Origin: Pyrenula massariospora
Taxonomy: Eukaryota; Ascomycota; Eurotiomycetes; Pyrenulales; Pyrenulaceae
Length of the DNA: 64,000 nt
Reading direction: 5' to 3'
NCBI GenBank assembly: GCA_021030905.1
Contig: JAGFMI010000016.1
Span: forward strand, 248,001-312,000
The notes under the pieces are model-generated. The model did no database searches. It was not told the DNA's origin and was given only the letters and a program-made list of their open reading frames with translations. Made by a program: the position numbers and the translations under genes. Positions 55,381 to 56,049 of the stretch are shown one piece after another. Position 1 is the first letter of the stretch. Every line of letters begins with the position of its first letter.

Positions 55381-56049
55381 AGTAAGTCAGCGCACAAATT
55401 TCATGCTGGATATTCCAACTAACGCGACATTGTTTTGTAGTGCAGATGTACGCTCCATCGATCCAGTTACTCCAGCATTCACCGCTAACGCCGTCCCCAG
55501 CTTCGTGAAGACCCTGACGGGCAAGACTATCACGCTCGAGGTCGAATCGAGCGACACCATCGACAATGTCAAATCCAAGATCCAAGACAAGGAGGGCATT
55601 CCTCCAGACCAGCAGCGTTTGATCTTTGCGGGCAAACAGCTTGAAGATGGACGGACGCTGAGCGATTACAATATCCAGAAGGTATTCACACACATATCTC
55701 TTGGGATTGCTTGAAGAGGTGGTCTGACGGATGTTTGATAGGAATCTACACTGCACCTCGTGCTCCGTCTGCGCGGCGGTATCATCGAACCCTCCTTGAA
55801 AGCATTGGCAAGCAAGTACAACTGTGAGTTTCAAGAAACAATTCGGGACAGGACAAGTATTGATTCTGGCGTGTGATAGGCGAGAAGATGATTTGCCGGA
55901 AATGCTACGCCCGGTTGCCGCCGAGGGCTACCAACTGCAGGAAGAAGGTAATTATTCGACGTCTATGCATTTTCTTCACCATTACTAAATGACTGAACTA
56001 GAAATGCGGGCATTCCAATCAGCTACGGCCTAAGAAGAAGATAAAGTAA
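55381..56049 (+). CDS. RPL40: Ubiquitin-60S ribosomal protein L40 fusion
   Basis: The precursor is cut into ubiquitin (76 aa) and eL40 (52 aa) of the 60S subunit. Six coding pieces are supported: 55381 (the A of ATG), 55441..55447 (TGCAGAT), 55501..55681, 55742..55823, 55880..55947 and 56002..56049. Together they make exactly 128 codons plus stop. The spliced start reads CACCATGCAGATCTTCGTG, an ideal context. Ubiquitin ends LRLRGG and is followed by [20 protein letters not shown] with the four-cysteine zinc ribbon of L40. Donors are GTAAGT, GTACGC, GTATTC, GTGAGT and GTAATT. Branch sites AACTAACG and CGCTAACG precede the first two acceptors. A misleading ATG at 55403 opens a frame through both introns into ubiquitin. 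Confidence 0.96.
55441..55447 (+). other. 7-nt microexon holding most of the split start codon
   Basis: TGCAGAT is flanked by TTTTGTAG and GTACGC. It supplies the TG of the start codon, the Gln codon and the AT of the Ile codon. Without it the ubiquitin start Met-Gln-Ile cannot be built in frame. Confidence 0.85.

What the first reader, a model, noticed from the sequence alone, without database searches (positions are those of the whole stretch)
55381..55501. Ubiquitin-RPL40 start codon split A|UG with a 7-nt microexon
The only reading that yields complete ubiquitin joins the A at 55381 (end of CACCA before a GTAAGT donor), a 7-nt exon TGCAGAT (55441-55447) and CTTCGTG at 55501. The joined sequence has an ideal start context, CACCATGCAGATC. 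Both introns have clear branch sites. The whole model gives exactly 128 codons. An intron after ATGCAGAT is common in fungal ubiquitin genes, but a second intron inside the AUG leaving a 7-nt exon is unusual and would be missed by most gene finders.
Basis: partly seen in the sequence, partly recalled or inferred. Interest (0 to 1): 0.75.

Follow-up and report, generated by a model that had tools for sequence, protein, structure and literature searches.

The report
Ribosomal gene with intron-split start codon
In this fungus the gene for ubiquitin joined to ribosomal protein L40 very probably has its start codon cut by an intron, followed by a tiny 7-letter exon; this looks real, but it belongs to a known fungal habit of placing introns in or beside the start codon.

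Summary
The window is part of a 37.8-Mb genome that looks like a filamentous ascomycete; one L40 locus was found in it. Joining A(55381) + TGCAGAT(55441-55447) + CTTCGTG(55501...), with three more introns downstream, gives exactly 128 codons of ubiquitin-eL40. An independent spliced aligner returns this model as its optimum. All 52 readings with up to two introns that give MQIF use this microexon, and 0 of 2000 shuffles of the upstream DNA reach the score. Both introns have a CTAAC branch motif. "Unusual" holds only in part. Among 58 other conserved genes modelled in the same genome, two more have a split AUG: RPL3 (AT|G), in this window at 29448-29396, and RPL19 (AT|G). Four have an intron directly after ATG, and exons of 10, 12 and 14 nt occur. 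In Yarrowia, 47 genes have a one-base first coding exon (PMC2911113). What remains special is the combination: a one-base coding exon followed by a 7-nt exon, so that only the fully spliced isoform among those I predicted has the normal start. Transcript proof and conservation in relatives could not be tested. No regulatory role is shown.

The parts
55381..55381 (+). last base of exon 1 (5' UTR plus A of the AUG), a one-base first coding exon
   Evidence: transcription start unknown
55382..55440 (+). intron 1, splits A|UG, 59 nt, GTAAGT...CTAAC...TAG
55441..55447 (+). 7-nt microexon TGCAGAT
55448..55500 (+). intron 2, 53 nt, GTACGC...CTAAC...CAG
55501..55681 (+). exon 3, last base of I3 and ubiquitin residues F4 to K63
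55682..55741 (+). intron 3
55742..55823 (+). exon 4, end of ubiquitin and start of eL40
55824..55879 (+). intron 4
55880..55947 (+). exon 5, eL40
55948..56001 (+). intron 5
56002..56049 (+). exon 6, end of eL40 and stop
55403..55405 (+). ATG inside intron 1, in frame with TTCGTG through both introns (33 residues replace MQI if both introns stay)
29449..29450 (-). second case in the window: AT of the RPL3 (uL3) start codon, before an intron at 29448-29396 (GTAAAG...CTAAC...TACAG); G follows at 29395

Best explanation
This is the ordinary RPL40 gene (ubiquitin fused to ribosomal protein eL40), the only one found, of a fungus that looks like a filamentous ascomycete. Its pre-mRNA carries two short introns within the first 8 coding bases. 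Intron 1 lies between the A and the UG of the start codon, and intron 2 lies 7 bases further on. Both are short with a branch motif near the acceptor, so the spliceosome most likely recognises each by intron definition and removes them one after the other, which makes a 7-nt exon tolerable. Only after both are gone does the mRNA carry CACCAUGCAGAUCUUCGUG and encode ubiquitin-eL40, which is then cleaved as usual. The arrangement is the extreme end of a tendency, seen in the conserved genes I sampled, to have introns at the 5' end of the coding sequence. Shown: sequence, reading frame, splice signals, rank against the other readings enumerated, and other split AUGs in the same genome. Inferred: actual splicing, order of removal, intron definition.
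For: Spliced aligner optimum with 128 residues. No zero- or one-intron alternative and 52 of 52 two-intron readings use the microexon. The model without the microexon loses 29 points, and the model without a split start loses 13 and drops Q2. 0 of 2000 shuffles reach the score. Sole PF01020 place found in the genome. Donor 1 at the 59th and acceptor 1 at the 50th percentile of 74 introns modelled in 29 first-batch genes. Two further split AUGs, in uL3 and eL19, whose N-termini align from residue 1 with solved ribosomal proteins. The product matches fungal and other eL40 chains over 1-128 of 128 (table; the printed alignments there were ubiquitin chains, which begin MQIF). Yarrowia precedent: 47 genes with a one-base first coding exon (PMC2911113, passages), and 42 introns whose donor lies directly after A, T or G of the start codon, a group reported to splice efficiently (PMC13309789, passages).
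Against: No RNA data. Intron 2 has a rather weak donor (GTACGC, 8th percentile) and a weak acceptor (18th percentile). A donor further upstream ending in A (55088, score 7.44) cannot be excluded from sequence alone. The percentiles are partly circular, because the aligner that supplied the introns favours consensus sites. The aligner can also propose a false split AUG, as it did for eL31.
Confidence: 0.92

Rival explanations
1. The microexon is right but intron 1 starts at another donor further upstream (for example 55088), so the A of the AUG belongs to a more distant 5' UTR exon.
For: Donor scan: ATAGTAAGG at 55088 scores 7.44 against 8.23 for 55382. 52 two-intron readings, differing only in the donor of intron 1, exist when introns up to about 1500 nt are allowed.
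Against: It would need a 353-nt intron; introns modelled in this genome had a median of 70 nt, within an allowed range of 45-260. It would lose the CACC context before the AUG.
Confidence: 0.05
2. The start codon is not split: the protein starts at ATG 55403 inside 'intron 1' and reads through both introns, giving a 33-residue leader in place of MQI.
For: The frame is open through both introns; with introns 3-5 removed it gives 158 residues.
Against: It removes residues 1-3 of ubiquitin, whereas the table lists many eL40 fusion chains that match over 1-128. It leaves two complete sets of splice signals unused. A 34-codon open stretch is not rare by chance (about 0.2, my estimate from 61/64 per codon).
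Confidence: 0.02
3. The locus is a decayed copy and the split start is an accident of decay.
Against: It is the only eL40 place found in the genome, the frame is intact for 128 codons, and five introns with GT-AG ends remain.
Confidence: 0.01

Closest known systems
One-base first coding exons in Yarrowia lipolytica (Mekouar et al. 2010, PMC2911113; passages read)
   Same: The first coding exon is only the A of the initiation codon; 47 genes reported.
   Different: A budding yeast; the passages I saw do not mention a following microexon or ubiquitin genes.
Start-codon introns in Yarrowia (PMC13309789, 2026; passages read)
   Same: 42 introns with the donor directly after A, T or G of the start codon, tied to high splicing efficiency and expression.
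   Different: Measured with RNA there; only predicted here.
Trichoderma Xlr2 20-nt microexon (PMC11121469; abstract and passages read)
   Same: A very short exon in a filamentous ascomycete, absent from the automatic gene model.
   Different: That one is alternatively spliced and separates two protein isoforms. Here, in the predicted isoforms, skipping leaves no ubiquitin start, so inclusion must be constitutive for function.
RPL3 and RPL19 of the same genome
   Same: Start codon split by an intron in a ribosomal protein gene.
   Different: Split AT|G, not A|TG, and no microexon directly after it (the next uL3 exon is 32 nt).

Membership tests
Ubiquitin-eL40 (RPL40) fusion gene | 76-residue ubiquitin followed by eL40, about 128 residues | tested here: met
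   128 residues; table lists eL40 chains matched over 1-128; PF01020 over its cut-off
Ubiquitin-eL40 (RPL40) fusion gene | complete MQIF N-terminus | tested here: met
   only by joining the one-base exon and the 7-nt exon
Start-codon-splitting introns of fungi | spliceosomal intron between the bases of the AUG | tested here: met
   sequence and model
Start-codon-splitting introns of fungi | intron removed in mRNA | not testable with these tools
   no RNA data held
Microexons | internal exon of at most about 30 nt with functional splice sites on both sides | tested here: met
   7 nt, TGTAG and GTACGC; the model without it loses 29 points; sequence level only, use of the sites not tested
Regulated (switch) microexons | inclusion varies and gives two useful products | tested here: inconclusive
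   in the predicted isoforms, skipping leaves no ubiquitin start, which speaks against it; whether inclusion varies needs RNA
Split AUG conserved in related fungi | same intron in orthologous RPL40 genes | tested here: inconclusive
   no fungal genome collection available; no eL40 relative in viral contigs nor among the 80 of 369 genome contigs relatives that were kept

The most novel reading that the evidence does not exclude
The doubly interrupted start works as a splicing check on ribosome and ubiquitin supply. Among the predicted isoforms only the fully spliced message has the normal AUG. Single retention or microexon skipping gives frames without ubiquitin, while retaining both introns opens an in-frame AUG whose product (33 residues + ubiquitin without MQI + eL40) could still release eL40 after cleavage, so the ratio of free ubiquitin to L40 could respond to splicing capacity.
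Probability: 0.04. Interest if true: 0.6.

Novelty: new member of a known kind. Interest (0 to 1): 0.25.

Why it matters
It matters mainly for annotation. A universal protein gene can be missed or given a false start because its AUG exists only in spliced RNA and one exon is 7 nt long. Besides this gene, 2 of 58 other conserved genes modelled in this genome have a split AUG, so N-termini of some models in such genomes may be wrong. If the splicing-check idea were true, it would tie ubiquitin and ribosome supply to splicing capacity, but nothing here shows it.

Tried and rejected
Looked for relatives to test conservation of the A|UG intron. Viral contigs with Ub-eL40 gave 9 ubiquitin loci; genome contigs kept 80 of 369 relatives; in a tblastn of the eL40 part against the 102 loci held by then, only three loci of the window's own gene matched. 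Viral contigs with eL40 alone gave none. Plasmids gave one record, a bacterial ubiquitin-family gene. A microexon DNA pattern in viral contigs matched 114 stretches: 80 were checked and all 114, and 0 of 114 continue into ubiquitin.

Split AUG in eL31, proposed by the aligner, was rejected: its margin was under one point, and the DNA has an uninterrupted MSTQKKGTTTK... start just downstream, a stretch the yeast-like query lacks. The uS11 start model, which contains a 6-nt and a 9-nt exon, is unreliable for a similar reason and is counted as unresolved. The UBI4 model locked onto a later repeat; the true start, read by eye, has a 22-nt first coding exon and an unsplit AUG. The uL3 model misplaces its third intron; by eye the exon ends ...GTCAAGAG before GTTGCT.

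A TTAGGGTT (telobox-like) motif lies 113 nt before the A of the AUG, but only 5 of the 31 first-batch genes show any such hit, so it was not used. A useful skipped product of the microexon was not found.

Literature: PMC full-text searches (terms on split start codon, microexon, ubiquitin and RPL40 introns) listed no paper that, by title and start of abstract, treats a split AUG in a fungal ubiquitin gene; several lists were capped. I saw those listings, and passages of PMC13309789, PMC2911113, PMC11121469, PMC7674629, PMC7049704 and PMC10182648. Subscription papers on fungal ubiquitin genes are mostly not held, so this is no proof of absence.

Full report
What is there. The window is C7:248001-312000 of a 37.8-Mb genome in 33 contigs, in which one eL40 place was found. 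The gene structure and the closest solved ribosomal proteins suggest a filamentous ascomycete; the top uL3 chains were 7r81, 8oo0 and 7olc and the top eL19 chains 7olc and 7r81 (that these come from Neurospora and Chaetomium is my recall). At 55381-56049 lies ubiquitin-eL40 in six coding exons of 1, 7, 181, 82, 68 and 48 nt, with introns of 59, 53, 60, 56 and 54 nt. The product is 128 residues long.

Is the split start real in sequence terms? I wrote a spliced aligner that knows GT-AG ends, a weak donor, acceptor and branch score, and allows an intron inside the AUG. Forbidding an AUG split costs 13 points and yields MIFVK, without the Q; removing the 7-nt exon costs 29 points and loses the MQIFV start. 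A separate enumeration found no zero- or one-intron reading to MQIF and 52 two-intron readings; all 52 use intron 55448-55500 and the acceptor at 55440, so they differ only in the donor of intron 1. Among donors ending in A, 55382 is the best by a position matrix from 74 introns of this genome (8.23; next 7.44 at 55088). In 2000 dinucleotide shuffles of 54901-55495, none reached the real score and 3 gave a MQIF start. The result is therefore far from chance, and only the exact upstream donor carries some doubt.

Signal quality. Intron 1: GTAAGT, CTAAC 18 nt before the acceptor, TGTAG; donor and acceptor at the 59th and 50th percentiles. Intron 2: GTACGC, CTAAC 12 nt before the acceptor, CCCAG; only the 8th and 18th percentiles. 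Introns 4 and 5 have no CTRAY motif in the scanned range.

How unusual is it in this genome? I modelled 59 conserved genes of the same genome: 31 (including the three ubiquitin genes and RPL3) and 28. Three have a split AUG, the finding itself and two others: eL40 (A|TG), uL3 (AT|GTAAAG...TACAG|G, in this window at 29448-29396 on the minus strand) and eL19 (AT|GTAAGT...TATAG|G, C29:648881-649044). Forbidding the split costs 27 points for uL3 and 37 for eL19, and both N-termini align from residue 1 with solved ribosomal proteins. A fourth proposal, eL31, was an artefact, and uS11 is unresolved. Four genes (eL42, calmodulin, uL22, uL18) have an intron directly after ATG. Counting the aligner's list without eL31, 14 of 59 have a first coding exon of at most 8 nt. 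Internal exons of 10 nt (eL33), 12 nt (beta-tubulin) and 14 nt (eL34) were each needed by their models, by 30, 46 and 17 points. So introns at and in the start codon, and very small exons, recur in this genome, and RPL40 is the extreme case of my sample. The small-exon check was run on 7 of the 59 genes only, searches printed only the first six or five introns of each gene, and the unreliable uS11 model contains a 6-nt exon; 7 nt being the smallest holds within those limits.

What the isoforms would encode (assuming transcription starts at 55320). All spliced: 128 residues from GTCACCATGC. Intron 1 kept: 62 residues out of the ubiquitin frame. Intron 2 kept: 22 residues. Microexon skipped: no ubiquitin start. 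Both kept: 158 residues, 33 new ones in place of MQI. Nothing spliced: the same start, 103 residues. If transcription starts upstream of 55308, an out-of-frame AUG there would precede the true one (74 codons in the spliced RNA); the start site is unknown.

Mechanism. The most likely course is ordinary intron definition with sequential removal of two short introns, followed by normal translation and cleavage of the fusion; the order and the RNA itself are inferred. An expression benefit of start-codon introns is plausible from Yarrowia, where such introns have high splicing efficiency and their genes high expression (PMC13309789, passages).

Known kinds. One-base first coding exons were reported for 47 Yarrowia genes (PMC2911113, passages). 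A 20-nt microexon in Trichoderma was called the first functional one described in filamentous fungi (PMC11121469, abstract and passages); its reference list cites work on intron definition in S. pombe (title seen only). The present case combines the two features in a universal gene. I rate it a new member of a known kind, with interest mostly for annotation.

Limits. No fungal genome collection and no RNA were available, so conservation and actual splicing are untested. The splice-site percentiles rest on introns chosen by the same aligner in 29 of the 59 genes.

Noticed in passing
window 29448-29396, minus strand: RPL3 (uL3) also has its start codon split, AT|G, by a 53-nt intron; unspliced, the DNA reads ATG TAA, a start directly followed by a stop.
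   Followed up: yes
L148 (G000:C29:648881-649044): RPL19 (eL19) start codon split AT|G by a 164-nt intron.
   Followed up: yes
L154 (eL33), L117 (beta-tubulin), L151 (eL34): Internal exons of 10, 12 and 14 nt in conserved genes.
   Followed up: partly
window 55403-55501: An ATG inside intron 1 is in frame with ubiquitin through both introns and could make an N-extended, MQI-less fusion if both introns stay.
   Followed up: partly
window 55268-55275: TTAGGGTT motif 113 nt before the A of the RPL40 AUG; the only full 8-mer (either strand) found upstream of the 31 first-batch genes.
   Followed up: partly
L027, L059, L082, L046, L080 and other genome-contig loci: Ubiquitin-like genes up to 95% identical to the query in assemblies labelled as bacteria (Dyella, Conexibacter, Rhodobacter, Loktanella); contamination or transfer not examined.
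   Followed up: no
window 13648-17679, minus strand: Two long open frames that look like a Dicer-type helicase and RNase III protein (judged by eye, from no search).
   Followed up: no
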